Both the position numbers and the translations under genes were made by a program. From positions 1 to 57,441 of the forward strand of contig NZ_WIOK01000031.1 in NCBI RefSeq assembly GCF_009467825.1: a DNA stretch of 57,441 nucleotides, read 5' to 3'. A model generated the notes under the pieces. That model was given only the letters and a program-made list of their open reading frames with translations. It was not told the DNA's origin and searched no databases. Positions 33,677 through 48,269 of this stretch are shown here, piece by piece. Position 1 is the stretch's first letter; each line of letters begins with the position of its first letter. This DNA comes from Cyclobacterium xiamenense. Its GTDB lineage: Bacteria; Bacteroidota; Bacteroidia; Cytophagales; Cyclobacteriaceae.

Positions 33677-33898
33677 ATGGAAAACAGCAATTGGGTCAAC
33701 TACAAAATCGATATCAGGGAGCGGCTTAAGCGATTTGCACTTGAGGTATTGGCCTTGTCCGAAAAATTTCCAAAAACAACCCACCCATATGACACACCTT
33801 TTCAATTTTTTTTCGACATTTCGAATTGCCGGCTCACTTGCGGAGGGCTTCGGTTCAGTAACGGTATAAATCTATGTCTTCCTCAAACATTCAATTAA
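33677..33898 (+). pseudogene. Truncated duplicate of the S23 four-helix-bundle gene
   Basis: The first ~35 codons match the S23 gene at 33014 almost exactly (residues MENSNWVNYKID, RERLKRFAL and so on), then the match stops abruptly after AAAACAACC (33782) and the frame runs on with unrelated residues into the next gene. It is therefore a recent 5' duplicate cut off by a rearrangement. Confidence 0.85.
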
Positions 33899-34566
33899 AC
33901 CCCGTCAAACTGGGTGTTCAGCTTGAAAACATGCCTCATGGGGTGTACAGAAAACTATTGGTCCCCGACTATATCAATATGATGCAACTGCACGCTGTTC
34001 TCCAAATTGCAATGGGCTGGACGTTCAGTCACTTGTTCCAATTTATGGATACCCGGCAGCGACCGAAACTGATTGCCAGCTTTGGCGCATTTGAATCGTA
34101 CGAGGAACCACTACCCTATGAATACGAAGCTCACAGGCTTCTACTGAAACGAGACTACATGGAACGGATTGGCAGGAAAAACCTGTGGTACTGGTACGAT
34201 TTCGGGGACGACTGGTGGCATAAGATCAGCTTCTTAAAGCCGACAAAGCAGGATCTAATTGAATTCAAGGGGATTCCCATTTGCATGGACGCCTATGGAA
34301 AGTGTCCTCCAGAAGATGTAGGCGGTGCCTGGGGGTACCAGGATTTTTGTGATGCAATCGATAACAAAAAACATCCGGAATACCGCTCCTATCGAGAGTG
34401 GCTGGGACTGGATATGAAAATGCCCTATGAACTGGAAAAGGTGTCCATCACTCCAATAAACGAAACGCTAAGGGCCTATTTTCATTCGAGGGAGTGGAGC
34501 CGGGACACCCAGCAGTCCTTTCAGGAAGGCTGGGTAGAATTCTTCGAGAGCAGAGAAGTAAGTTGA
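33874..34566 (+). CDS. Plasmid pRiA4b ORF-3-like family protein
   Basis: 230 residues of the pRiA4b ORF-3-like family (also annotated IS1096 passenger TnpR-like). Marks: KLLVPDYINMMQLHAVLQIAMGWT at 26-48 in the start region, YWYDFGDDWWHKI around 108-120 and PPEDVGGAWGY near 148-158. The function is unknown. Two more members, one broken, occur inside the cas locus at 44598 and 46668. The start overlaps the pseudogene frame just upstream. Confidence 0.85.
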   Translation: MSSSNIQLNPVKLGVQLENMPHGVYRKLLVPDYINMMQLHAVLQIAMGWTFSHLFQFMDTRQRPKLIASFGAFESYEEPLPYEYEAHRLLLKRDYMERIGRKNLWYWYDFGDDWWHKISFLKPTKQDLIEFKGIPICMDAYGKCPPEDVGGAWGYQDFCDAIDNKKHPEYRSYREWLGLDMKMPYELEKVSITPINETLRAYFHSREWSRDTQQSFQEGWVEFFESREVS

Positions 34567-34842
34567 TTTCTTCCGGCGCAGTTGGTTCATTTCCAGAACA
34601 CAATGCATCGTCTCCATGATCACCCATGCCTCAAGAAAACATTACAACAAAAATTCGGAAAAAATACCCCGATCCCGGTATTTTATTTCTTTTCCATTTT
34701 CCCGATATTGATTTCGATTGAGGACGACCATTTTCCCCAACTACCTATTTCTTATTTCGTTCTTTTAATGGTTTCACTGCTGTGAATCACGGGCCGAAGG
34801 TGTGGGCCTTCCGGTAGCAACGGGCATTCCTATAAACGAGAC

Positions 34843-35136
34843 ATGCGGTTATTAATTACACTTCAAAAAGAGGCGGGATCGCTTCTCCCAATCAATTACC
34901 AATACGAACTTTCCTCCCTGATCTACAAAACCATCGACCGGGCAGACAGCCACTTTAGCGACTTTTTACACCAGCAAGGCTATCTGGCTTTTGGCCGTTC
35001 CTTTCGCCTATTTACGTTTTCGAGAATTTCTTTTGATCGATACCGTGTGGCCAGGGAATCGGGTAGGATAAATCACCATGGACAAATGCCGGATTCGGGC
35101 ATTTGGGGAGTCAGGGATTTGGTTGTGTGGGGGTAA
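34843..35136 (+). pseudogene. Truncated Cas6-like gene (N-terminal remnant)
   Basis: 97 residues resembling the N-terminal RAMP fold of Bacteroidota Cas6: MRLLITLQKE, PINYQYELSSLIYKTI, HSHFSDFLH-like HFSDFLHQQGY, and RSFRLFTFSRI. A stop comes after about 97 residues with divergent sequence near the end, and the C-terminal half with the glycine-rich loop is absent. It is probably the remains of an older cas6 or second CRISPR-Cas locus. A complete cas6 lies 740 bases downstream. Confidence 0.7.
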
Positions 35137-35173
35137 GAGAAAGATAGAAAATGAAAGAAGGAAAAATGAAAAG

Positions 35174-35341
35174 TTATTTGTTGTTTTCCAACTGTAGTCG
35201 AATGGCTTCCTTCATTAACCGCTCACCTTCTTTCTTTGAAACAGGTCTCGCCACGGCTTTTAGTGATTTCCATACCCGCTCCCTTTCTTCATTGGTACTG
35301 GCCTGTGCAAAGGGGTTAAGGTTTTTTGCTTTTTTGTCCAT
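35174..35341 (-). CDS. Small antitoxin-like protein (55 aa)
   Basis: Minus-strand ORF MDKKAKNLNPFAQ... (55 residues, ATG at 35341, TAA at 35174). It is highly charged, with a helical C-terminal region (LMKEAIRLQLENNK). It starts 24 bases after the end of the preceding gene on the same strand. The order toxin then small antitoxin, and its size and charge, fit a type II toxin-antitoxin module. No family was firmly recognised. Confidence 0.55.
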   Translation of the reverse strand: MDKKAKNLNPFAQASTNEERERVWKSLKAVARPVSKKEGERLMKEAIRLQLENNK

Positions 35342-35364
35342 ACCTCAAATATACTGTAATTCTA

Positions 35365-35640
35365 TTACCCGGCACAATAGAAATGTTCTATTTCCTCTTC
35401 ATCAGCGACTTTCACCTGAAGAATTTTGCGTTTTAGATTTTCACTAGTTGAAGCAATCAGTAAGATCCTTTTTTTGGAACTATATCCGCAAGCAATGGTA
35501 TAAAAATCTTTCATAGGATAGTCTTCCAGCGTGGAAAGCCTGTGCCTGGGATTGTCCAATACAGAAAGAATTTCAGATTGAGTTATCCTGTCCGGATAGT
35601 CACCATTCCTTTCACTTAACCCTGAAAAATCTATATCCAT
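35365..35640 (-). CDS. Possible BrnT-like toxin
   Basis: 91-residue protein with ITQSEILSVLDNPRHRL, DFYTIACGYSSKKRILLIAST and a C-terminal EEEIEHFYC. The layout (short helix, beta strands with a hydrophobic CGYSSKKRILLIA core, C-terminal helix) recalls BrnT and related RelE-fold toxins, but similarity is weak. The downstream 55-residue gene would be its antitoxin. Both lie antisense between the cas6 remnant and cas6. Confidence 0.5.
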   Translation of the reverse strand: MDIDFSGLSERNGDYPDRITQSEILSVLDNPRHRLSTLEDYPMKDFYTIACGYSSKKRILLIASTSENLKRKILQVKVADEEEIEHFYCAG

Positions 35641-35878
35641 ATTTGCCTGGCTTTTACATAAATAAAGGACCGGAGGAATTGTTTTTCCTCCGGGAAATCC
35701 AAGATGGTGCGATTAAGCTCTTTCTAAAGAGTAAAGCGTAATTTTTCAATACCTTGAATGAATTTCAATCAAAGACTAGTAAAATTAAAAAACTAAAGTG
35801 TTATCTAAAAAAATAATTATATTTAATTCCTGTGTAGAAAAAAGCAAATTTCCGCTTTTTTAAATAAATTCCAGTGAA

Positions 35879-36535
35879 ATGAGATTAATCTTAAAGACAT
35901 CACCCGCCAAGACCCTGGTCCCTTTCAACTACCAAAAATTTTTGGTGGGCAGGTTTCACAAGTGGCTGGGAAATAATAAAGAGCATGATGAACTATCCCT
36001 TTATTCCTTATCCTGGCTACAGGGTGGCGAGATGGTAAAAGAAGGGCTGAAGTTTTCCCTCGGAGCCGAATGGAGCATCAGTGCTTTTGACGTATCGCTG
36101 CTCAAAACCTTAGTCAGCAATATCCAGGAGGATCCGGAAATCAACTTTGGGATGCATGTAACGGACCTGGTTATTGTGAAGGAACCTCCGTTTGATACCA
36201 GGCAGAAATTTTTTCTGAACAGCCCCGTGTTCATAAAGCGGAATCAAGGCAACAGGGTTCACTATTACCTGTTCAAGGATCCAGAAAGTTCGGGGCTATT
36301 GACCCAAACCCTCCAAACAAAGCTGGAAAAAGCCGGATTGAGCTCCGAAGGAGTAAGGGTATCTTTTGACCACAATTATCACCATCCCAAAACAAAAATA
36401 ATTGATTACAATGGCATTGGCTGTAAAGCCAGTATGTGCCCAGTCATTGTCGAAGGAACTCCGGAGCAGGTTGCTTTCGCATGGAACGTGGGAATAGGTA
36501 ACTCCACCGGTATTGGATTTGGCGCATTAAAATAA
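35879..36535 (+). CDS. cas6: CRISPR-associated endoribonuclease Cas6
   Basis: 218 residues. RAMP-fold protein that cuts the CRISPR precursor RNA within the repeat. Start MRLILKTSPAKTLVPFNYQ, HH pairs in FDHNYHHPKT near 162-170, and the C-terminal glycine-rich loop GIGNSTGIGFGALK. First gene of the cas operon, with an AT-rich 240-base promoter region upstream that shows no other gene. It precedes the next cas gene by 7 bases. Confidence 0.9.
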   Translation: MRLILKTSPAKTLVPFNYQKFLVGRFHKWLGNNKEHDELSLYSLSWLQGGEMVKEGLKFSLGAEWSISAFDVSLLKTLVSNIQEDPEINFGMHVTDLVIVKEPPFDTRQKFFLNSPVFIKRNQGNRVHYYLFKDPESSGLLTQTLQTKLEKAGLSSEGVRVSFDHNYHHPKTKIIDYNGIGCKASMCPVIVEGTPEQVAFAWNVGIGNSTGIGFGALK

Positions 36536-36542
36536 TGAAAAA

Positions 36543-37127
36543 ATGACATACTATGTTGTAAAATATTCCGGCCCATTTGGTTTTATTAAGCCCTGGACGG
36601 CTGTTAGAGACAGTGAGACGTTTAGCCAGCAGTTTTTGACCCCTTCCATAATAGAGGGCATTGAAAAAAAGCTATTCCCTGAGCTTTTATCCATTTCAGG
36701 CATACAGAAAATAGCAGGTCACAGACTGTCATACGATCAAGTGTCAGGGCAACAGGAGGTGATTCAAACCAGAGGATGGAATGCAACCAGAAAAGGCAAA
36801 GAGTTCCTCTTCGAACGACCCAAGGCGATATTGATACGGGGCATTTTGCAAAATCCGATCCTCCATTTGGCTTTTACATCCAAAGGCGATGCGGCAAACG
36901 CAAAAAAACAACATGTATGTCTTTGCAGGAATGAAGATATGTTGTATCCCGATAATTTAATTGAGGCCAGTAAAAAGTCATTTCAACAGGATGAAGAGAG
37001 GTTCCCAGGCTTCGAATTAGTCTTCGAAAAAACTGAAAAATCATTTCTGGTAGGCTATCACCGAATAACAAATGAGCCTATGTATGGATGGATAAAAGTC
37101 GTTGGCAAACCGGTTTCATCCTTCTAA
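36543..37127 (+). CDS. cas5: CRISPR-associated Cas5-like protein
   Basis: 194 residues of the RAMP superfamily. MTYYVVKYSGPFGFIKPWTA at the start looks like the Cas5 N-terminal ferredoxin-like strand, followed by TFSQQFLTPSIIEGIEKKLF, comparable to the TPSxxxxxLE helix of Cas5. It would cap the 5' handle end of the crRNA in a Cascade complex. Its TAA stop overlaps the ATG of cas3 (TAATG), so translation is coupled. Confidence 0.75.
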   Translation: MTYYVVKYSGPFGFIKPWTAVRDSETFSQQFLTPSIIEGIEKKLFPELLSISGIQKIAGHRLSYDQVSGQQEVIQTRGWNATRKGKEFLFERPKAILIRGILQNPILHLAFTSKGDAANAKKQHVCLCRNEDMLYPDNLIEASKKSFQQDEERFPGFELVFEKTEKSFLVGYHRITNEPMYGWIKVVGKPVSSF

Positions 37128-39274
37128 TGGAAAAACTACTCGCAAAGTCCGCTCCTGAATTCACTCCGCTAAGAGACCATCTTTTGCATGTCTCCTTTGC
37201 GGCACAGTCCTTTGCCAACTATTTGCGAATGGAAGAATCCGTGGCATTCAATGGTGCAATTCTTCACGATATAGGGAAAGCACATCCTGAATTTCAAAAA
37301 AGGGTAAAAGACAAAGGGAGGTACACCAAAGTTTTTAGGCATGAAATATGTTCATTATTCTTCCTATCTATATTCCCTGAAGAAGAATACCCAGCTTTAT
37401 TGGATATGGTCATTGCTCACCACAAATCAGCCAAAAATGATTCTGGCGACAAGGGGTTGTTGGATTTGGAAAACGGATATGACTATATCGACTACCATCT
37501 GGGCAATTGGGATCAATGGTCACCAAATGCCTTTAAACTACTAACTGATCTCGGAATTCCCTGTAGCCCGTTTGGTGAAGAAGTAGCGAGACAAAATCTT
37601 TCCTACGCAATATCCTATTGTAAGAAACAAACGAAAATTAGGGGATATGCGGAGTGGAGAGGGTTGCTCATGGGGGCGGATCACTTTGCATCAGCTCTAA
37701 TCAATAGGACCGAGGAAAACCTTAAAAAAGCTTTTCGTGTACCCAATCTTACTTTTTTTAACCGTACACATCCCCTTTACCCTCTTTCACAGAAAGAAAC
37801 CGATTCTCCAAAGAAACATACCCTTGTTGTGGCCAGTACGGGTGCGGGGAAAACGGACTATCTTTTCAAGAGGACAAAAGGCCGTGTGTTTTATACGCTC
37901 CCGTTTCAAGCGTCTATCAATGCCATGTTTAAGCGGGTGTCCAAGGATTTGCAAGCGGACAACCCGGATCTTGACATAAGGGTTTTGCATGCCGCCTCTA
38001 TGGTGGTCCGGCAGAATCGCAGGGAAGAGGAGAGCGTTTTGCAGCCACTGTTCGGTTCGGCGATTAAAATAATGACACCGCATCAATTGGCTGCAATTGC
38101 TTTCGGAATGAAAGGTTACGAAGCCATGTTGCTTGACTTAAAAGGGTGTGATATCATCTTGGACGAAATCCATACCTATACAGGCGTTTCTCAGGCAATA
38201 GTACTAAAACTAGTTCAGATTCTCAGGCAATTGGGCTGTTCCATTCACATAGGAACGGCTACTATGCCAACAAAGCTATATCAGAAAATAGTCGAAGAAT
38301 TGGGCGATGATATCTTAGAGGAAAAACTAACTCCTGAGGAGCTGGATAAATTTGACCGGCACACTCTATACAAAATCAATTCGTTTGAAGAAAGTTTGCC
38401 CTTTATCCATCAGGCGATTGAAGAGGAAAAGAAAGTATTGGTAGTCTATAATCGGGTTGCCAGAGCGCAAAAAGCCTATCTCTATTTAAAAGAATTGTAT
38501 CCGGATACTCCGATTCTTTTGCTCCATAGCCGCTTTAAAAGAGCTGATAGAAATTTTAAAGAAAAACAATTACTTGGCTTGGATGAGGAAGGAAATCAGA
38601 ACGGAGAATTTAACACCTCTTCCGAAGCTTGCATAGTGGTATCCACGCAGATCGTAGAAGTAAGCCTGGATATCAGTTTTGACCTAATGGTGACAGAGAC
38701 TGCCCCAATAGATGCATTGATTCAGCGTTTTGGGCGGATTAATCGAAGAAGAACCGAGGACACCATAGGGAAAACCAAGCCAGTCTTTGTAATTGCTCCT
38801 TGGGAAAATAAAAACGACTCCCTGCCCTATGATGTGGAAGTACTCCAAAGGTCCTATGATGTTTTGGAGGACAACCAAGTTTTAAAAGAGCGGGATTTGC
38901 AGGGGAAAATTGACTATGTGTTTCCCGCAATTGATTTTATGAATATAGAAGAACATGCTGTATTTAAATCAGATGGTAAAATTTCCATTGACAAGCTTAC
39001 ACATCGGAGCAAATCGATTTTGTTTGAATTGCTAGATATTGACGGAGTATCCTGTATTTGTGAAGCAGATTTGGAAGCATATGAAAATGCGAGTTTCGAA
39101 AGAAGGTTGGAAATGGAAATACCGGTAAGGTATTTTGCAGTGAAGGGAATGAACCAAGCACAAAATGGCAACAAGCCCTTTATCATCCCAGATAAAGCGT
39201 ATGATTTTGAAATTGGCTTGGATGTAAAGCAAATAAGGGAAAGCAACTTTGACGTAAATAACCAAATATTATGA
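37127..39274 (+). CDS. cas3: CRISPR-associated nuclease/helicase Cas3
   Basis: 715 residues. HD nuclease domain first: H47-D48 in HDIGKAH and HH98-99 in AHHKSAK. Then a superfamily 2 helicase with Walker A TGAGKT (238-243), DEIH box (346-349), GTATMP and the QRFGRINRR motif VI. It unwinds and degrades target DNA recruited by Cascade. The ATG at 37127 (MEKLLAKSAPEF) is preferred to an upstream in-frame ATG at 37088 because it overlaps the cas5 stop as TAATG and matches the family start. The stop overlaps the next start as ATGA. Confidence 0.92.
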   Translation: MEKLLAKSAPEFTPLRDHLLHVSFAAQSFANYLRMEESVAFNGAILHDIGKAHPEFQKRVKDKGRYTKVFRHEICSLFFLSIFPEEEYPALLDMVIAHHKSAKNDSGDKGLLDLENGYDYIDYHLGNWDQWSPNAFKLLTDLGIPCSPFGEEVARQNLSYAISYCKKQTKIRGYAEWRGLLMGADHFASALINRTEENLKKAFRVPNLTFFNRTHPLYPLSQKETDSPKKHTLVVASTGAGKTDYLFKRTKGRVFYTLPFQASINAMFKRVSKDLQADNPDLDIRVLHAASMVVRQNRREEESVLQPLFGSAIKIMTPHQLAAIAFGMKGYEAMLLDLKGCDIILDEIHTYTGVSQAIVLKLVQILRQLGCSIHIGTATMPTKLYQKIVEELGDDILEEKLTPEELDKFDRHTLYKINSFEESLPFIHQAIEEEKKVLVVYNRVARAQKAYLYLKELYPDTPILLLHSRFKRADRNFKEKQLLGLDEEGNQNGEFNTSSEACIVVSTQIVEVSLDISFDLMVTETAPIDALIQRFGRINRRRTEDTIGKTKPVFVIAPWENKNDSLPYDVEVLQRSYDVLEDNQVLKERDLQGKIDYVFPAIDFMNIEEHAVFKSDGKISIDKLTHRSKSILFELLDIDGVSCICEADLEAYENASFERRLEMEIPVRYFAVKGMNQAQNGNKPFIIPDKAYDFEIGLDVKQIRESNFDVNNQIL

Positions 39275-40587
39275 TCACAGCAGTAATAGGTAGGACTTTT
39301 CTCAATGCATATAATGAAAAAAATGGCCAAGAGCTGTCCCCTAGAGCATTTTTTGAAAAGGAGTATTGGGAATTGTTTTACAACCATCCAAAATACATGC
39401 AATGGGTAACCAATTCGCCTTTTGTACAAATGAAAAGCGGACAAAAGCCTCATTTACTTTCAATCGACCAACGAATAGAAAAGCTCGAAAACCTTTTCGA
39501 AAAAGCCAAAAATGAAATCCCTGATGCGAGTTTTGCTTTGGGGTATCCGGCTTCCGAGTCTAAGGAGTATGCGAGCACTTCCGGATTAGTCAGTAATGTG
39601 GTTATACCGGCGGATGAAGATGAAGTTTACCTATCCTGGATTGGAAGCGGCTTGGGGATTACCGTTGCTGGTGGCTTTTCCATTCTTTTTGATAACCCCA
39701 GTATTACTCTTCAAACCTTCAAGGGTTGGAAAATTTATCGAAAGTATTTGAACGATCCTACTTTGGAAAAACTTCGGGGAAATCAAATCAACACGTGGAA
39801 CGGGCGGTGGTTGACCTATTCGCTAAATCCTGAGGAATACCGGGAAGATTTTGATTTTTCAGAACTGACCAACCAGAAAATATTCAAAGTGGATACAACC
39901 ATGGCAGAAGTATCCACAGTAAGCTGGAGCCAGTTGTTTTTTAGTCTTTCAACACAATTTCCCAAAGCTGAGATGATGGGATATGTTTATGGTTTTGGCC
40001 AGACAAATAAAACCATTGGCTTTATTCCTTTTCAACTAAAGTCTGGAGAAAATATCAAAGAGGTTTATCAAAAACTCTTTGGAAACTTTAAAACTAACAA
40101 AAAAGAGTTTGAAAGCCTGTTCGGGATGCATATCAAACGGGCCTGTGAATTGGGAAGTATAGGATTACAAGCACTTCGCCCTGAAAGCATGAAAAAATAC
40201 ATGACAGATGGCAAAAATCTATCCTTCAAAAAAGAAGAAGACACAATTAATTATCAAGCATACAAAACCTGGTTAGTCGCTATGTTAACACGAAACAAAG
40301 AAGAAATTACAGACTATACCCCTAAAATGGCTGAGGTCATATTGCGGTATAGAAATACCGGAAAAGGAATGTCAAGGGTCACACTGGTAGAAAAGGAGCT
40401 GTTCACATCCAAATCCAAACGGGGATTTATCGAGTCTTTGACCCTAATGATTCCGGATTTGGATGGGGAAGATTTGGAGTCCCTCAAAACACTAAAAGAT
40501 GAAATACACCTGATGACGAACGAAGAGTTTGGCTACTTCCTAACGCTTCTTAAGTTCGATTACGCATATCAACAAAAGAAATCATAA
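39271..40587 (+). CDS. cas8: Cas8-like large subunit of the Cascade complex
   Basis: 438 residues. Not a close match to any well-known Cas8 from memory, but its place between cas3 and cas7, its size, and its type I-B-like partners make the large-subunit role likely. Notable blocks: LSWIGSGLGITVAGGFSILFDNP (about 127-149), KGWKIYRKYLNDP, QINTWNGRWLTY and VILRYRNTGKG. In this role it would recognise the PAM. ATGA overlap with cas3. Confidence 0.7.
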   Translation: MITAVIGRTFLNAYNEKNGQELSPRAFFEKEYWELFYNHPKYMQWVTNSPFVQMKSGQKPHLLSIDQRIEKLENLFEKAKNEIPDASFALGYPASESKEYASTSGLVSNVVIPADEDEVYLSWIGSGLGITVAGGFSILFDNPSITLQTFKGWKIYRKYLNDPTLEKLRGNQINTWNGRWLTYSLNPEEYREDFDFSELTNQKIFKVDTTMAEVSTVSWSQLFFSLSTQFPKAEMMGYVYGFGQTNKTIGFIPFQLKSGENIKEVYQKLFGNFKTNKKEFESLFGMHIKRACELGSIGLQALRPESMKKYMTDGKNLSFKKEEDTINYQAYKTWLVAMLTRNKEEITDYTPKMAEVILRYRNTGKGMSRVTLVEKELFTSKSKRGFIESLTLMIPDLDGEDLESLKTLKDEIHLMTNEEFGYFLTLLKFDYAYQQKKS

Positions 40588-40605
40588 TCCAAAAATAGTT
40601 AAAAC

Positions 40606-41673
40606 ATGAATACCATTTACATAAGAACTTTAAAGAGAGCCGAACACACTGTTTTCAATGTAGCCAGTGGCCAAAAGTATTATTATGACGTTCAGTTCAA
40701 CAAAAGAATCCCTTTTTCTAGCGGGCAGCAGGTAAAGCGGTCCTTGATTGACGCGCTTTGCGAAGCAATTGACCAAACCCCATCCCCCACTACTTTTTTG
40801 TTTGAAGTGGATAAGCAAAAAAAGCTCAAAGAAGGTGAGGTTTATGGAACTTGTGATCCAACCTACGCTGACCAGTTATTTGGCGGTTGGATGAAAGCCT
40901 CAAAAGGTGGGGGAGAAAGAACCCTTAAAAGAAGAAGCCCGCTATCCATTTCTGCCATGCGTGCATAACATCCATTATTGGCCGGTATGGATTCAAGTGG
41001 TGGAGAAGCAGGATCCTTCGACAGAAGTGAGCGGCCCAACAATGCCGTAATTATTCGCGACGAAAAAGGAAATATACTTACTGAAGAAGAAATCGATGTT
41101 GTATTGAAAACTGAGGGTAATACTGATAGAAGTTTGGGAAGGAAATGGTTGAATCCTGCAGAGCGGGCAACAGGACTGTTTGTCTTTGACATTGCCATAG
41201 ATTTACGGAGGCTCTTTTCTGTCAGTACCAATCAGCTTGAGCCGGAAATGGCTGATTCTACGATCGGAAAACTGAAGGAAGAGGGTTGGATTGAGTCGAA
41301 AAATGTATTCGGTCCCTGCCTGGTAGCACCAATGGCATTGCGGGCGAAATGGATTCCCGGCCTTGCCAAAGCCATCCTCAACTGGCGCATCACTTCAAAC
41401 CAATCACGAACATTCAGTTTGATGGATACCTTGGCTGTTTCCATCAGTGATAATGCCAACCTGATTGCTGGTAGCATCAGAGCCAAACTATCCGAGGAAG
41501 ATTCCAAAAAGGCAGATCCCATTATAGACGAAGGATTGACGGGAGTAGACACGTTTATTTCGCTTCAAGCAGGGGGCTTTATTCATACCAAAGGGGAAAC
41601 AGCAGATGCCCTCGAACGCGCAGAGAAAGCTTTAATCGAGAAAATGATGGCCTTTGATTACGAAAACCAATAG
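40606..41673 (+). pseudogene. cas7: cas7 interrupted by an in-frame TAA
   Basis: One continuous reading frame of 356 codons for the Cascade backbone protein Cas7, with a single TAA at 40966-40968 (codon 121). The N part starts MNTIYIRTLKRAEHTVFNVA and ends RRSPLSISAMRA before the stop; the frame continues HPLLAGMDSSGGEAGSFD without any shift. The C part reads to MMAFDYENQ. The downstream half could restart at TTG 40978 or ATG 40987. Both halves keep Cas7-like blocks (KGGGERTLKRRSP; NWRITSNQSRTFSLMDT). With a normal stop the complex would lack its backbone, so interference should fail. A sequencing error is also possible. Confidence 0.85.
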
Positions 41674-41758
41674 TCCTGGGGATTTAAATTAATTCCTTCC
41701 CAAGCTCAAAAGCGGCTAGTGGAAGCTTATGCAAGTAACATAAATAGGGTAAATTCCC

Positions 41759-43168
41759 ATGTTCGACCAATTCTACCAACAATCCAGTGAGCAGCTAAAG
41801 CTGGCTTTCCTTGAGGAAGTGTTCCGAAAATACCCGGAGCTCAAAGAGGAATTCCTGGGTTTTTACTTGAAACCCTCGGGTAAAACCTTGAAAATGACCG
41901 TCCGCGACCCGGATGATTTTATTATGGCCAGTGCTGATCTCATCAGGGCGGACCTTGAATCTATCAATATCAATGAGCCTGATTGGCAGGAGTATACCCC
42001 CCCTCATAACGGGTATATCCCAGAGTATGAGGCCATGGAACACATGGCCGAAGGCGAGATCAGCAGGATCATTGGCATTCATGTAGCGGAGGTAGAAAGG
42101 TACTGTACCGAAAAACAGGTCGATCTGGCCTTCTTATACATGTTCAGCCTCCACCAGGCCTGCACAAAAGCCGAGCTCGACGATGAATACGAAACTTTGC
42201 CCGATCCGGTGAGCTCCATGCTCAATCAACTCGATCAGCACCTGCAGGATTGTGTCCCCCTGTTCAGTGTCCTACATGCTGCCGACGATCAACTGTTCAC
42301 CATTGCTTCCGTGCTAATTGATCAACATCAGAAATCCCCTTCGGATGATCATGAACTACTGCCCTTTTTCGAATCGTATCTTTATTTCCTCATTCACTCA
42401 GGGGCAGAGGCCAACATCCTACTTGACGTGCTAGAGCAAAAAGAGGCTATCGATGCCCTCCCCTGGCTGGTTTCTGAATTGCACCGAAAAGCTGGTGGCC
42501 TGAAAGCCTGGGAAAAAACCGCCCTGATTTTCTTTAAAAAAAACAGACAGGTAGCAAGCGCACTCTTGGACCATTACAAAACGGCTAACAAACAGGAGTT
42601 TGTACGCATTGCAAAAACGCTCTGGTCGGAAGGGCTTTTTCAGGAAGAATTTGCCAGCCGGTATTTCGACGTATTAGAGCCTTCTGACGATCCCAACTTG
42701 TACAAGCAGGTGACGATACGCTTGAACGAAAGAAAATTTTCGGAAAATTACTACCGGGTACTTCAGGAACTGATGGGAATGGAAGAACGGATGCGGTATA
42801 TTGAAAAATTCCATTGGGATCGGCCGGCCTATGTTCTGGCACTTTGTATGGACGGGAAATACACCCAGGCAATAAATTATGCCCGGCAGCATGCTGACCG
42901 GTGGAATATTGTGGCAATAATGACTCCTTGCATTCAAAGCGACCCAAAGGCTGCTTTGAGCCTGTTGGATCAGAAAATACAGGAACTACTCATCGATGAA
43001 CGCGGGAGGAATTTTTATGAAAGGATTGCCCAATTACTGAAAATAGCTGCGAGTACCCCCGGTATTCAGCAGGAGGCCGCGGACCTGGCAACAAAGATTT
43101 ATTCCATTTACTCCAGATTAACCGCGCTTAGGGCTGAACTGAGGTCTGCGGGTTTGATCAACATGTAG
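41759..43168 (+). CDS. Unknown 469-residue helical protein inside the cas locus
   Basis: Almost entirely helical by composition, in repeating pairs of amphipathic helices (for example LPWLVSELHRKAGG, ALLDHYKTANKQEFVRIAK, EFASRYFDVLEP, YVLALCMDGKYTQAINYAR), so probably a HEAT- or TPR-like solenoid. No catalytic motif or signal was seen and the family was not recognised. It starts 85 bases after cas7 on the same strand and is followed by the vapBC pair. Its position between interference and adaptation genes makes a CRISPR-linked role possible, but it may just be a passenger. Confidence 0.8.
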   Translation: MFDQFYQQSSEQLKLAFLEEVFRKYPELKEEFLGFYLKPSGKTLKMTVRDPDDFIMASADLIRADLESININEPDWQEYTPPHNGYIPEYEAMEHMAEGEISRIIGIHVAEVERYCTEKQVDLAFLYMFSLHQACTKAELDDEYETLPDPVSSMLNQLDQHLQDCVPLFSVLHAADDQLFTIASVLIDQHQKSPSDDHELLPFFESYLYFLIHSGAEANILLDVLEQKEAIDALPWLVSELHRKAGGLKAWEKTALIFFKKNRQVASALLDHYKTANKQEFVRIAKTLWSEGLFQEEFASRYFDVLEPSDDPNLYKQVTIRLNERKFSENYYRVLQELMGMEERMRYIEKFHWDRPAYVLALCMDGKYTQAINYARQHADRWNIVAIMTPCIQSDPKAALSLLDQKIQELLIDERGRNFYERIAQLLKIAASTPGIQQEAADLATKIYSIYSRLTALRAELRSAGLINM

Positions 43169-43359
43169 GAAATCTTCGGCCCGCACAACGCTCCATTACC
43201 TTTGTAATAGGGCAGAAACCTGATTTAAGGTAAAAAAGTCGTAACAGATTAATTTGACAGCGACTTGAAAATAGAATAATCTATCGTATAGTATTTTCGT
43301 ATGTTTCAATACTATATTGATGACGGATAAATAATTAAAATTCCAACGAATTGATTGCT

Positions 43360-43584
43360 ATGAAAGTGACTGCAATATTACCTGATGATATGATAGCGGA
43401 TGTGAAAGCATTTACCGGAGGTAAAAACATCAACGGCAGCCTGATATAAGCACTGAATGACTGGCTGTACTTGAAAAGGATCGAAAAATTAAATGCTACC
43501 TTGTCCAAAGGCCCGGTCACTTTTCAGGAGGGGTTTTCTGCAGAGAAGGTGAGAAATCGTAGCAACGGACATGATCGTTCCTGA
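43360..43584 (+). pseudogene. VapB-type antitoxin gene with an in-frame TAA
   Basis: Frame starts MKVTAILPDDMIADVKAFTG, continues GGKNINGSLI, hits TAA at 43447-43449, and then runs on in frame as ALNDWLYLKRIEKLNATLSK to a normal stop at 43584. This is a small RHH-like antitoxin of the DUF2191 type. Its end overlaps the vapC start by 14 bases. The antitoxin would therefore be truncated after 29 residues. Confidence 0.75.
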
Positions 43585-43948
43585 TACCAGTATCTGGATA
43601 GAATTCCTGAAGCAAAATGATCCGGTGACTGCCCGTTTTTTGACGTTACTGAAAGCCGGGAAGATAGCCGTTATTGAACCCATCTTTGCAGAGCTCCTCT
43701 ACGGGGTCAGAAAACCAAAAGACAAAGAACTGGTACTTTCCTATTGGCAGATTTTGCCAAAACTGGATTTTGAGCGTGGTTCCATGTTACGGGCTTCCCA
43801 TTTTGCCAACGACAATAATTTTCACAATCTAGGGATGGGCCTGATGGACGCTTCAATCATGCAACCAGTAATTAATAACGGTTATCAGTTGTGGACCTTG
43901 GACAAGAAGGTACTGAGTATCCTGGATGCCGCTCATAGGTTTGATTAG
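43571..43948 (+). CDS. vapC: PIN-domain ribonuclease toxin VapC
   Basis: 125 residues with a complete PIN active site: D5 (VPDTSIWIEF), E41 (FAELLYG), D93 (GLMDASIM) and D111 (TLDKKV). VapC toxins cut RNA, and need VapB for neutralisation; here the cognate antitoxin frame is broken, so either the toxin is silent or the antitoxin is read through. Confidence 0.88.
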   Translation: MIVPDTSIWIEFLKQNDPVTARFLTLLKAGKIAVIEPIFAELLYGVRKPKDKELVLSYWQILPKLDFERGSMLRASHFANDNNFHNLGMGLMDASIMQPVINNGYQLWTLDKKVLSILDAAHRFD

Positions 43949-43959
43949 TAAGACTCCCC

Positions 43960-44466
43960 TTGACGATCACCGGCACCCATATCGCCTACCTTCACACCTG
44001 CCACCGCAAACTTTGGCTCTTTGCCCATGCCATCCGAATGGAACACACTTCCCAATTGGTAGCCGAGGGCAAACTAATCGGTGAGACCAGCTATCCCGAT
44101 AGGTCCAAAAAATACACCGAATTGGAACTCGATGGCATCAAAATCGACTTTTACGATGCCAAAAACAAAGTCATCCATGAGGTCAAAAAAACCGATAAGG
44201 TAGAACGGGCGCATATCGCCCAGGTAAAGTATTACCTGTATATGCTGTCCAAAAATGGAATCGAAGGGGCCAGTGCCTTACTTGAATACCCCAAAATGCG
44301 GCAAACTCAAATTGTGGAATGGGAAGAAGGAGATGAAGCTTTGGTAAGTACCTATATTCAGAAGGCTACCGCCATTATCAATCAGCCCCACTGTCCCGCG
44401 TTGGTTAGACTCCCCATTTGCGAAAAATGTAGCTACTATGATTTTTGCTATTCGGGAGAGGAGTGA
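43960..44466 (+). CDS. cas4: Cas4 exonuclease, copy 1
   Basis: 168 residues. Cas4 of the type I systems trims protospacers so that spacers are acquired with the right PAM. Iron-sulfur cysteines: C14 and the trio C154, C157 and C163 (ICEKCSYYDFC). RecB-type nuclease motif with D63, EVKK (E74-K76) and Q88 (HIAQVKYYLY). The start is TTG at 43960; no ATG or GTG lies nearby. About 90% identical to copy 2 at 46034; the middle part (VERAHIAQVKYYLYMLSKNG) matches at DNA level. Confidence 0.9.
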   Translation: MTITGTHIAYLHTCHRKLWLFAHAIRMEHTSQLVAEGKLIGETSYPDRSKKYTELELDGIKIDFYDAKNKVIHEVKKTDKVERAHIAQVKYYLYMLSKNGIEGASALLEYPKMRQTQIVEWEEGDEALVSTYIQKATAIINQPHCPALVRLPICEKCSYYDFCYSGEE

Positions 44467-44597
44467 TGGTTGTTAACGGGGTGATCACAAATGGAATAAA
44501 CTGCTAGTAACGGGATGTTTGCCAACAACCAATTTTCAATTAAGAACAATAGGGATGAAGAAATAAAAAACCAATAAAAAAATCATCAAAAAACCTA

Positions 44598-44818
44598 TTG
44601 TTGTTTAAACTAAAAAAACATGTCAAAGAAATTTCCAAACCTCTTGTATGGCGCAGACTCCTGTTTCCAAATCATTATACATTCAGTCGCTTTCATGTAG
44701 TAATCCCAGCTGCATTTGGATGGGAGGATTATCGCTTATACCAATTTTCACCCATTCCAAACCCCAAATCAGTGTTGCGGACAAGGAATGAGAAGAGGAA
44801 GAAATGAAAAAACCCGAA
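44598..44818 (+). pseudogene. Decayed pRiA4b ORF-3-like gene
   Basis: The first ~52 residues match the intact gene at 46668 (LKKHVKEISKP, VWRRLLFPNHYTFSR, AAFGWEDYRLYQFSP). Then a small deletion relative to the intact copy shifts the frame (about 44755), giving ...RNEKRKK and a stop, and the homology ends near 44818 where the ATPase gene region begins. The original ATG is now TTG. Confidence 0.85.
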
Positions 44819-44855
44819 AATTTCAGTTGGCTGCTACTCATTTTTTCATATCTTG

Positions 44856-44876
44856 CGTTACGTAGATCACGTAACG
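44856..44876. promoter_or_regulatory. Palindromic operator candidate upstream of the ATPase gene
   Basis: Perfect inverted repeat CGTTACGT-AGATC-ACGTAACG (8-bp arms, 5-base spacer), 13 bases before the ATG at 44890. The following TATATCACGAAATATGA contains a partial copy (TATCACG). The position overlaps the promoter/ribosome-binding region, as for a repressor site. Confidence 0.6.
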
Positions 44877-44889
44877 TATATCACGAAAT

Positions 44890-46011
44890 ATGAGAAAGCC
44901 TGCCAATCCATTTGTCCTTAGCGGTTACCACAGTCCCGCCTATTTCTGCAACCGGAAAAGGGAGTTGGCCTGGTTGGAGGAACAATTTAGCAACGAACGT
45001 AACGCAGTGATTTATGCCTACCGCAGGATGGGCAAAACTGCCCTTATAAAGCAGTTTTTCTATTACCTGGAAAAAGAAAAAAGGGCCAAAACGGTGTTTG
45101 TGGACTTACTGGGCACGAGCAGCATGCAAGAAGCCAACAAAAAACTGGCAAATGCCATTCTTCAGCAGTTTGAAAACCTACATACCGGACTAGGCAAAAA
45201 AATGCTGGCCATGCTCAGTTCATTGGGCGCAACCATTAGTATGGATCCCATTAGTGGTGCACCTCAGATTTCCCTTGGATTGGTTCAGGCCTCCGAGGCA
45301 GAACGCTCCATGGAAGCCATTGGCACCTTTCTTAAAGAGCTAAAACAGCCCGTCGTCGTCGCTATTGACGAATTTCAACAAATCACTTCTTATACCAGGC
45401 AAAATGCCGAAGCGATTTTCCGGTCCTGGACGCAAGAATTTCCCATGATACGTTTTATTTTCAGTGGCAGTCATCGGCATATGATGCAAACCATGTTTAC
45501 CGACCATGGACGCCCTTTTTATAATAGTGCGCAGCTCTGGTCCTTGGAGTCCATAGACAAGACGGACTATGCTGTATTTATCCGGGCATTTTTCAAAAAA
45601 GTAAACCTCGAAATCAGTAAACCGCTGCTGGATGACATCTTTGCCTGGTGTCGCATGCAAACCTATTATGTACAGCTTATCTGCAACAAACTCTATGGCA
45701 GAAAGCAGGTCATTGGCGAGAAACTACTTTCGGAGGTGAAGCAGGAAATTATACAACAGGAAGCACCGCTTTTTGGCACCTACCAGCAATTGTTAACTGA
45801 TTTTCAGTGGAGGACATTGAAAGCCATCGCCTTACAAGAAATCGTACCCTCCCCCACGGCTCAGGAATTCATTGCCAAATATAACCTTGGTGCTGCCAGT
45901 TCAGTAAGTACAGCCCTTCAGTTACTGGTAAAAAAAGAGTTTGTTGTTTATCAAAACGATCATTACCGCCTTCACGACACCTTATTAATGAGGTGGCTAC
46001 AGCAACTTTAA
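44890..46011 (+). CDS. AAA/STAND-type ATPase (archaeal-ATPase-like)
   Basis: 373 residues of the PF01637-like ATPase group. Walker A reads YAYRRMGKT (42-50), with alanine where the first glycine is usual; Walker B is VVVAIDEFQQI (D160-E161); sensor block FIFSGSHRHMM near 190-200. The C terminus is helical with a winged-helix-like end (FVVYQNDHYRLHDTLLMRWL). Such ATPases are common in mobile or defence contexts with unknown targets. It interrupts the duplicated cas4 unit and has its own palindromic operator. Confidence 0.85.
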   Translation: MRKPANPFVLSGYHSPAYFCNRKRELAWLEEQFSNERNAVIYAYRRMGKTALIKQFFYYLEKEKRAKTVFVDLLGTSSMQEANKKLANAILQQFENLHTGLGKKMLAMLSSLGATISMDPISGAPQISLGLVQASEAERSMEAIGTFLKELKQPVVVAIDEFQQITSYTRQNAEAIFRSWTQEFPMIRFIFSGSHRHMMQTMFTDHGRPFYNSAQLWSLESIDKTDYAVFIRAFFKKVNLEISKPLLDDIFAWCRMQTYYVQLICNKLYGRKQVIGEKLLSEVKQEIIQQEAPLFGTYQQLLTDFQWRTLKAIALQEIVPSPTAQEFIAKYNLGAASSVSTALQLLVKKEFVVYQNDHYRLHDTLLMRWLQQL

Positions 46012-46033
46012 TACGCCTGATTTAGCGCAATAA

Positions 46034-46543
46034 TTGAATACCACCGGCACGCATATCGCCTATCTCCACACCTGCCACCGCAAACTTTGGCTCTTTGCCC
46101 ATGGCATTCGGATGGAGCACACCTCGGATATCGTGGCCGAGGGCAAACTTATTGGAGAGACAAGCTATTCCGACCGGACCAAGAAATACACCGAACTGGA
46201 ATTAAACGGCATCAAAATCGACTTTTACGAAGCCAAAAACAAAGTCATTCACGAAGTCAAGAAAACCGATAAGGTAGAACGGGCGCATATCGCCCAGGTA
46301 AAGTATTACCTGTATATGCTGTCAAAAAATGGAATCGAAGGGGCCAGTGCCTTGCTTGAATACCCCAAAATGCGGCAAACCCAAATTGTGGAATGGGAAG
46401 AAGGAGATGAAGCTTTGGTAAGTACCTATATTCAGGAAGCTACCGCCATTATCAATCAGCCCTACTGCCCTCCGTTGGTTAGACTCTCCATCTGCAAAAA
46501 ATGTAGCTACTATGATTTTTGCTACGCGGGAGAGGAGAGATAA
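46034..46543 (+). CDS. cas4: Cas4 exonuclease, copy 2
   Basis: 169 residues, about 90% identical to copy 1 and with the same residues: C14, EVKK, Q88, and C154/C157/C163 (ICKKCSYYDFC). It also begins with TTG. It is followed by the intact pRiA4b ORF-3-like gene and then cas1 and cas2, so this is probably the native operon copy. Confidence 0.9.
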   Translation: MNTTGTHIAYLHTCHRKLWLFAHGIRMEHTSDIVAEGKLIGETSYSDRTKKYTELELNGIKIDFYEAKNKVIHEVKKTDKVERAHIAQVKYYLYMLSKNGIEGASALLEYPKMRQTQIVEWEEGDEALVSTYIQEATAIINQPYCPPLVRLSICKKCSYYDFCYAGEER

Positions 46544-47264: not shown

Positions 47265-48269
47265 ATGAAAAAAACCTATTACCTCTTCAACCCCGGCAGG
47301 CTTAGCCGAAAGGATTTCACATTGAAATTCACGCCTGTAGACGAGTCGGGAAAGGAAGGAACGCCCAAGTACATTCCGGTGGAGGGTGTCTCGGACCTGT
47401 ATTGCTTTGGCAGCCTGGATGCCAATTCGGCCTTGTATAATTTTTTGGGGAAAGCTGGCATCAGCGTGCATTTCTTTGATTATTACGAACATTATACGGG
47501 AAGCTTTCAACCCAAAGAATATTTGCTGGCCGGCAAGATGCAAATCCAACAGACCCTGCATTATTCTCAGGCGGATAGCCGATTGAAAATTGCCAGGAAA
47601 TTTGTCGAAGGGGCTGCATTCAATATCAGCAAAAACCTGAAGTACTACCAAAACCGGGGCAAAGACCTGGAAAACTCGCTTAAGAAAATTACCCAGTTTA
47701 GTATGCTTATAAATGGCTCCGGTGATATTCCTTCTTTGATGGGGGTAGAGGGGAATATCCGGCAGGAATATTACCGGGCCTTTGACCTGATCTTGAAAGA
47801 CCATGCCATGGAGGGCCGGAGCAAGCAGCCGCCCTTGAATGAGGTAAACGCGTTGATATCCTTTGGCAATATGATGTGCTATACGCTTTGCCTGGATCAA
47901 ATTTACCATACCCAGTTAAATCCCACGATCAGTTTTCTTCACGAACCCGGGTACAGAAGGTACTCTTTGGCGCTGGACCTGGCGGAGATATTCAAGCCCA
48001 TTCTGGTGGATCGAACCATCTTCCGGGTATTGAACAAACGAGAAGTCAAATCCAAGGACTTTGATTTTCATGTCAACAAGGTGATTTTGAAGGAAAGCGG
48101 CAAAAAAGCCTTTATCCGGGCATTTGAAGAACGGCTGAATGAAACCATCAAACATAGAACCTTGAAAAAACAAGTAAGCTACAAGTATCTGGTCAAACTG
48201 GAATGCTACAAGCTCAGCAAACACCTGCTGGGAATGGAAACGTATCAGCCATTTAAGGTTTGGTGGTAG
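47265..48269 (+). CDS. cas1: CRISPR-associated integrase Cas1 (type I-B-like)
   Basis: 334 residues. Integrates new spacers together with Cas2. Metal residues E162 (LMGVEGNIRQEYY), H226 (SFLHEPGYRRYSL) and D238/E241 (LDLAEIFKP) are present. The N-terminal region with GRLSRKDFTLKF and YIPVEGVSDLYCFG and the C-terminal KKQVSYKYLVKLECYKLSKHLLG fit type I-B Cas1. It appears intact, unlike cas7. Confidence 0.93.
   Translation: MKKTYYLFNPGRLSRKDFTLKFTPVDESGKEGTPKYIPVEGVSDLYCFGSLDANSALYNFLGKAGISVHFFDYYEHYTGSFQPKEYLLAGKMQIQQTLHYSQADSRLKIARKFVEGAAFNISKNLKYYQNRGKDLENSLKKITQFSMLINGSGDIPSLMGVEGNIRQEYYRAFDLILKDHAMEGRSKQPPLNEVNALISFGNMMCYTLCLDQIYHTQLNPTISFLHEPGYRRYSLALDLAEIFKPILVDRTIFRVLNKREVKSKDFDFHVNKVILKESGKKAFIRAFEERLNETIKHRTLKKQVSYKYLVKLECYKLSKHLLGMETYQPFKVWW

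What the first reader, a model, noticed from the sequence alone, without database searches (positions are those of the whole stretch)
40606..41673. cas7 carries a single in-frame TAA in an otherwise intact type I cas operon
The reading frame is continuous for 356 codons except for one TAA at 40966-40968. Both halves keep Cas7-like sequence, without a frameshift. The array, cas1, cas2, cas3 and cas6 look intact. Either interference is lost, or the stop is bypassed, or the two halves are made separately with restart at TTG 40978 or ATG 40987.
Basis: seen in the sequence. Interest (0 to 1): 0.75.

Follow-up and report, generated by a model that had tools for sequence, protein, structure and literature searches.

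The report
Recent stop mutation in CRISPR cas7
A Cyclobacterium species carries a fresh single-letter stop in the gene for the backbone protein of its CRISPR immune complex, so the defence is probably switched off while the genes around it still look sound; this is an ordinary kind of gene loss.

Summary
A type I-B cas7 is open over 356 codons except for TAA at 40966-40968, and both halves match Cas7b. Cyclobacterium roseum has the same gene, unbroken and identical at 1067 of 1068 bases. The effector cassette (about 33.8-46.2 kb) is nearly identical between the two species, whereas flanks, cas1, cas2 and spacers are not; the cassette was shared recently and the stop is younger still. No second cas7, RAMP gene or self-targeting spacer was found. 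Best reading: a very recent natural nonsense mutation that disables Cascade. A base-call error cannot be excluded without reads. Such mutations in type I effector genes are on record (E. coli UTI89 csy2). Found on the way: a CreR-like crRNA-like element lies divergently upstream of cas6. In 7 of 64 relatives its guide matches a site upstream of cas6 beside a CCN PAM; here the PAM and one seed position are lost. One Chlorobiaceae cas7 has an independent stop two codons away, unexplained and possibly chance.

The parts
40606..41673 (+). cas7 (Cas7b, type I-B) with one internal stop
   Evidence: only match found in the genome
40966..40968 (+). in-frame TAA, codon 121, close behind the conserved KRRSPLSIS motif
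35879..36535 (+). cas6
   Evidence: TIGR01877 88.9 bits, above cut-off
36543..37127 (+). cas5
   Evidence: PADLOC PDLC01480 E 7e-86; identical to C. roseum at 585 of 585 bases
37088..39274 (+). cas3 (HD and helicase)
   Evidence: TIGR01587 and TIGR01596 above cut-off
39271..40587 (+). cas8b
   Evidence: PADLOC PDLC01511 E 2.7e-176
43960..44466 (+). cas4, first copy
   Evidence: PF01930
46034..46543 (+). cas4, second copy
   Evidence: PF01930; repeat D4
47265..48269 (+). cas1
   Evidence: TIGR03641 436 bits
48335..48682 (+). cas2 (homology begins at residue 29, about 48419)
   Evidence: PF09827, TIGR01573
48896..54344 (+). CRISPR array: 83 repeats, 82 spacers, last repeat degenerate
35670..35750 (-). 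CreR-like RNA gene: handle-like TTGAAA, guide 35725-35742, degenerate repeat 35695-35724, hairpin 35670-35693
35787..35804 (-). site upstream of cas6 that corresponds to the CreR-like target; here without a CCN PAM and with a seed mismatch
35755..35878 (.). tract before cas6, 84 of 116 aligned bases identical to C. roseum, beside a stretch 109 of 110 identical
33800..46200 (.). effector cassette nearly identical to C. roseum (53 of 62 pieces of 200 bases at 98-100%, nine at 89.9-97.5%); flanks more divergent

Best explanation
A very recent spontaneous nonsense mutation has disabled the only cas7 found for a type I-B system. Shown: the stop; one cas7 match in the assembly; a near-identical intact copy in C. 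roseum; recent sharing of the cassette; no internal stop in 13 of 13 other full-length family genes. Inferred: translation ends after 120 residues, the fragment lacks most of the Cas7 fold, no Cascade backbone forms, and interference, primed adaptation and any Cascade-based autorepression are lost, while cas1, cas2, cas6 and the array stay intact because too little time has passed for them to decay. The stop needs no special cause. A link with the lost CreR-like match (either overexpression made Cascade costly, or the match drifted once Cascade was dead) is possible but not shown.
For: Cas7 differs from C. roseum at 1 of 1068 bases, in the stop codon (C. roseum identified by the title, contig length and coordinates of L029). 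cas6-cas7 hold 10 substitutions against C. roseum: 3 synonymous, 6 missense, 1 nonsense; random substitution would give 21%, 74% and 4.7%, so at least one nonsense in ten has probability 0.38 without selection. Against up to five outgroups the missense differences in cas3 (2), cas8 (1) and ORF41759 (1) look like changes on the C. roseum side (at cas8 residue 115 one of five outgroups shares the C. roseum residue); those in cas6 (3), PIN (1) and ATPase (4) could not be polarised. No other cas7 found, no RAMP match. The column holds an aliphatic residue in 80 of 80 relatives, inside a well-predicted region (pLDDT 93 and 87 for blocks 111-120 and 121-130); the model resembles Cas7 chains of Cascade. 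Precedent: nonsense mutations among S. epidermidis escapers and a stop in csy2 of E. coli UTI89 (PMC3784566, passages).
Against: No reads were available, so a base-call or assembly error is not excluded. No self-target explains a selected loss: 80 of 80 distinct spacers have no match in the assembly outside the array at E 0.001. No expression or activity data exist. A second, independent stop two codons away in L072 is slightly odd under pure chance.
Confidence: 0.73

Rival explanations
1. Sequencing or assembly error: the strain has an intact cas7.
For: The gene is otherwise identical to an intact copy (1067 of 1068 bases), as an error would look; no read depth is available; the assembly is a draft of 97 contigs.
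Against: No homopolymer or repeat lies at the site. The draft is 99.99% complete with 0.51% contamination. Substitution errors in short-read drafts are rare (recalled; the sequencing method of this draft is not known to me). The error would have to make a stop by chance.
Confidence: 0.16
2. Two-piece Cas7: the N-terminal 120 aa and a C-terminal piece started at TTG 40978 or ATG 40987 assemble.
For: Both halves keep family sequence; possible starts follow 9 and 18 bases after the stop; L072 has a stop two codons away; [quoted passage not shown] salivarius NCK 1352, with a split cas7 (csm5), showed stronger repression than an unsplit one in one cell-free set-up, though none was evident with pre-expression (PMC11288051, passages).
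Against: The halves are conserved because the stop is young, not through selection: nothing but the stop differs from C. roseum. The bases before the starts are not A-rich. The break falls between invariant residues. A start at 40987 (codon 128) drops the conserved HPLL at 122-125. 13 of 13 other full-length family genes are unsplit.
Confidence: 0.06
3. The stop is read through at a useful level.
For: The frame continues intact.
Against: TAA is recognised by both bacterial release factors (recalled); the next gene upstream, cas8, itself ends at TAA (40585-40587); no recoding signal distinguishes this gene from the intact copy, the other 1067 bases being the same.
Confidence: 0.03
4. The loss was selected because Cascade had become harmful: self-targeting, a wanted mobile element, or overexpression after loss of CreR-like repression. 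This concerns cause and is compatible with the main explanation.
For: Of the three Cyclobacterium copies aligned, only this one lacks the CCN PAM and has a seed mismatch; the tract before cas6 is replaced or fast-changing.
Against: No self-target was found; 30 of 82 spacers matched nothing in 245 family genomes beyond this array; the order of the two changes is unknown.
Confidence: 0.15

Closest known systems
Nonsense mutation in csy2 of the type I-F system of E. coli UTI89 (PMC3784566, passages)
   Same: single in-frame stop in one Cascade gene; other strains have an intact copy
   Different: there a spacer matches a resident plasmid; here no self-target was found, and the gene is cas7 of type I-B
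cas7b (Cst2/DevR) of type I-B CRISPR-Cas
   Same: both halves match the PADLOC family; operon cas6-cas5-cas3-cas8-cas7 with cas4, cas1, cas2 and array
   Different: internal stop
CreR, crRNA-like regulator of cas operons (PMC12737573, passages)
   Same: degenerate repeat and short guide; in 7 of 64 relatives the guide partly matches a site upstream of cas6 beside a PAM
   Different: in this window the guide-target match is degraded; expression untested
Split cas7 (csm5) of L. salivarius NCK 1352 (PMC11288051, passages)
   Same: a cas7-family gene in two coding pieces
   Different: type III-A, overlapping coding sequences, repression reported in one set-up; here no sign of adaptation to two pieces

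Membership tests
type I-B CRISPR-Cas | Cas8b, Cas7b, Cas5b, Cas3 and Cas6 in one operon | tested here: met
   cas7 interrupted
type I-B CRISPR-Cas | working Cascade (interference) | not testable with these tools
   needs experiment; expected to be lost
type I-B CRISPR-Cas | cas1b, cas2, cas4 and an array of the system | tested here: met
   TIGR03641 436 bits; PF09827 and PF01930; 83 repeats
pseudogene by nonsense mutation | stop in an otherwise intact gene that close relatives carry unbroken | tested here: met
   1 of 1068 bases differs from C. roseum; 13 of 13 other full-length family genes unbroken
pseudogene by nonsense mutation | product without function | not testable with these tools
   inferred from loss of residues 121-355
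CreR-like cas regulator | degenerate repeat outside the array with a short guide | tested here: met
   35670-35750 minus strand
CreR-like cas regulator | guide matches the cas promoter beside a PAM | tested here: not met
   met in 7 of 64 relatives, all 7 with CCN; dinucleotide shuffles gave 14 pairs in 1950, none with CC; in this window 13 of 15 positions (6, 12, 18 left out) and TAG in place of CCN
CreR-like cas regulator | Cascade-dependent repression | not testable with these tools
   needs experiment
two-piece Cas7 | split conserved in relatives, or a start signal of its own for the second piece | tested here: not met
   13 of 13 others unsplit, 79 of 80; no new signal

The most novel reading that the evidence does not exclude
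Cas7b tolerates, or uses, a chain break right after the KRRSPLSISAM stretch: two lineages (this Cyclobacterium, codon 121; a Chlorobiaceae MAG, codon 119) stop there, giving an N-terminal piece of 118-120 aa and a C-terminal piece that together, or the N-terminal piece alone, still serve Cascade or a regulatory role.
Probability: 0.04. Interest if true: 0.6.

Novelty: new member of a known kind. Interest (0 to 1): 0.3.

Why it matters
If the stop is real, it catches a CRISPR system at the first step of decay, with an intact, almost identical cassette in a sister species as a natural control. It also suggests that effector cassettes move between species without their adaptation genes and spacers. 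The CreR-like element found beside it makes a testable prediction about how cas expression behaves when Cascade is lost in Bacteroidota.

Tried and rejected
Self-targeting as the cause of loss: the 80 distinct spacers (of 82) against the own assembly gave only the array and its two duplicate spacers; the duplicates were detected at E 3.4e-11 and 1.1e-10, so exact targets would be seen, but targets with many mismatches could be missed. Phage sources: the whole array against 50,697 phage records, no match at E 0.01. Prophage targets: 30 of 82 spacers against 245 family genomes, no match outside the own array. A second cas7 or a type III system: no match. Solved structures by sequence: none at E 1. 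By fold, Cascade Cas7 chains match, but with rmsd of about 9-17 in the 50 rows shown, so I did not map codon 121 onto a solved complex. CreTA (a toxin guarded by Cascade) was considered for the 91-aa ORF 35365-35640: no family match, and in two CreR-bearing relatives looked at by eye (Marivirga, Anditalea) the sequence at that place differs; not pursued. A recurrent split site: wider surveys found no further full-length cas7 with a stop (22 other matches in 395 genomes of the phylum: 19 clean, G501, which is the same gene as L072, and two short stop-bearing matches, G234 and G291; 9 other matches in 395 genomes of the class: 8 clean and G234 again).

Literature: searches for nonsense or split cas7 (15 of 15 listed, 15 of 62 listed, 1 of 1) and for Cyclobacterium with CRISPR (3 of 3) showed no report of this stop in the listings; only open-licence papers are held.

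Full report
The observation. Frame 40606-41673 is open for 356 codons apart from TAA at 40966-40968. There is no frameshift, repeat or homopolymer at the site. The product before the stop is 120 aa. Both parts match one PADLOC Cas7b model, at profile positions 1-118 and 129-346 of 347; NCBIfam sees the first half as Cst2/DevR (E 1.9e-6, below its cut-off) and not the second; Pfam sees neither.

The setting. The operon reads cas6, cas5, cas3, cas8b, cas7, then an unassigned 469-aa ORF, a PIN-domain gene, cas4, an ATPase, a second cas4, a PRiA4_ORF3 gene, cas1, cas2 and an array of 83 repeats. The cas genes other than cas7 are uninterrupted. The assembly is 5.78 Mb in 97 contigs, 99.99% complete; protein searches found one cas7 and one cas1 in it, and there is no RAMP family match, while 4 of 14 control genomes ring.

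The close relative. G153 is Cyclobacterium roseum SYSU L10180 (contig length and coordinates agree with L029). Its cas7 is identical at 1067 of 1068 bases and unbroken. Of 62 pieces of 200 bases between 33801 and 46200, 53 are 98-100% identical and nine 89.9-97.5%; these nine include the tract before cas6 and pieces in and around the two cas4 copies. The 13 pieces to the left are 72-96%; of the 13 to the right the first aligns at 97% to the other cas4 copy and the rest are 75-93%. cas2 is 80% and cas1 89% identical. No spacer of the 82 here equals one of the 26 readable in C. roseum, whose contig ends inside the array. I infer that the effector cassette was exchanged recently between species without the adaptation genes and spacers; direction is unknown. 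Which species this genome is was not determined.

Age and neutrality of the stop. In cas6-cas7 there are 10 substitutions: 3 synonymous, 6 missense, 1 nonsense. Random substitution predicts 21%, 74% and 4.7%, and at least one nonsense among ten with probability 0.38. Against five outgroups the missense differences in cas3 (2) and cas8 (1) lie on the C. roseum side (at cas8 residue 115 one outgroup of five shares the C. roseum residue); those in cas6 (3) cannot be polarised. So the stop is young, and no damage to cas3, cas5 or cas8 in this genome shows.

How unusual it is. In the family, 14 of 196 genomes have the gene: this one broken, 13 others with a full-length unbroken match. In the genus 4 of 12 have it, the three others unbroken. 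Of 80 relatives kept from 236 in the genome collection, 79 have no internal stop. The exception, L072 from a Chlorobiaceae MAG, stops at residue 119, two codons from ours; L067, another Chlorobiaceae MAG with 78.5% identity over 7.1 kb, is unbroken. In 395 genomes of the phylum 22 others match: 19 unbroken, G501 (the same gene as L072), and two short stop-bearing matches. In 395 genomes of the class 9 others match, 8 unbroken and one of those short ones. These sets overlap. A second stop within two codons would occur by chance in about 5 of 355 cases (my arithmetic); codons one step from a stop stand in 49 of 80 relatives at column 121 and in 34 of 80 at column 119 (my count from the table). 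I treat it as probably chance, but unexplained.

Consequence. Codon 121 follows an invariant KRRSPLSIS stretch and precedes an invariant HP. The predicted structure of the C. roseum protein (mean pLDDT 83, pTM 0.82) matches Cas7 chains of Cascade complexes. Residues 121-355 hold the long strands at 187-199 and 273-281 and the helices at 243-259 and 335-349, so a 120-aa fragment should not fold as Cas7 (inference). Without Cas7 no Cascade backbone forms (established knowledge).

Two pieces or bypass. Because only one base differs from an intact gene, no new start, A-rich leader or recoding signal has evolved. A-content in the 22 bases before TTG 40978 and ATG 40987 is 0.32 and 0.27, against 0.36-0.59 for seven of eight gene starts and 0.23 for cas1. 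A type III-A system with a split csm5 gave repression in one cell-free set-up but none evident with pre-expression (PMC11288051, passages), so a two-piece protein is not impossible.

Cause. No self-target was found, so no pressure to lose immunity is shown. Spontaneous loss is frequent elsewhere: 1e-4 to 1e-3 per cell per generation in S. epidermidis, with nonsense mutations among the escapers, and a natural stop in csy2 of E. coli UTI89 (PMC3784566, passages).

A regulatory element nearby. A degenerate repeat lies on the minus strand at 35695-35724, upstream of cas6. With a handle-like TTGAAA, an 18-base guide (35725-35742) and a terminator-like hairpin it has the layout of CreR or CreA RNAs (PMC12737573 and PMC9458426, passages). 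In 7 of 64 relatives with a readable region before cas6 (of 65 with a cas6 match among 80 loci), a guide following TTGAAA matches a site in that region at positions 1-11 except the sixth, and all seven have a CCN PAM; dinucleotide shuffles gave 14 pairs in 1950 and none with CC; simple shuffles gave 2 in 1300. The other 57 relatives, among them another Cyclobacterium (L036), show no such pair by this rule. In C. roseum and C. lianum the mismatches over 18 bases fall only at positions 6 and 12, flipped-out positions in Cascade (recalled). In this window the guide differs from both at position 3, the target has further changes and TAG stands in place of CCN. The tract 35755-35878 is identical to C. 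roseum at 84 of 116 aligned bases, while the bases to its left are 109 of 110 identical. So an autorepression loop, if it works in the relatives, is probably open here. Whether that preceded or followed the stop is unknown; with Cascade dead it would be open in any case.

Verdict. Probably a real, young, inactivating nonsense mutation in the only cas7 found, of a kind already on record. The main remaining doubt is a base-call error. The CreR-like element and the cassette exchange deserve more attention than the stop itself.

Noticed in passing
35670-35804, minus strand: CreR-like crRNA-like element divergent to cas6; guide-target match with CCN PAM present in 7 of 64 relatives but degraded in this window.
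   Followed up: partly
33800-46200: Effector cassette nearly identical to C. roseum (53 of 62 pieces at 98-100%) between flanks of mostly 72-96% identity, adaptation genes not included: recent exchange between species.
   Followed up: partly
35755-35878: Sharp tract of 84 of 116 identical bases inside the otherwise near-identical cassette.
   Followed up: partly
L072:8001-9047: Independent stop at cas7 residue 119 in a Chlorobiaceae MAG, two codons from the window's stop.
   Followed up: partly
34843-35136: N-terminal remnant of a second cas6 (PADLOC Cas6b E 5.4e-23; PF21350).
   Followed up: no
43960-44466 and 46034-46543: Two cas4 copies in a duplicated unit of about 2 kb (repeats D4 and D8).
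   Followed up: no
51474 and 52334; 52798 and 53324: Two spacers occur twice in the array (repeat starts given).
   Followed up: no
33874-34566: PRiA4_ORF3 gene whose end differs from C. roseum by a one-base gap that changes the last residues.
   Followed up: no
41759-43168: 469-aa ORF downstream of cas7 without a family match, with relatives in the loci of C. lianum, Lunatimonas and Belliella at 53-63% identity.
   Followed up: no
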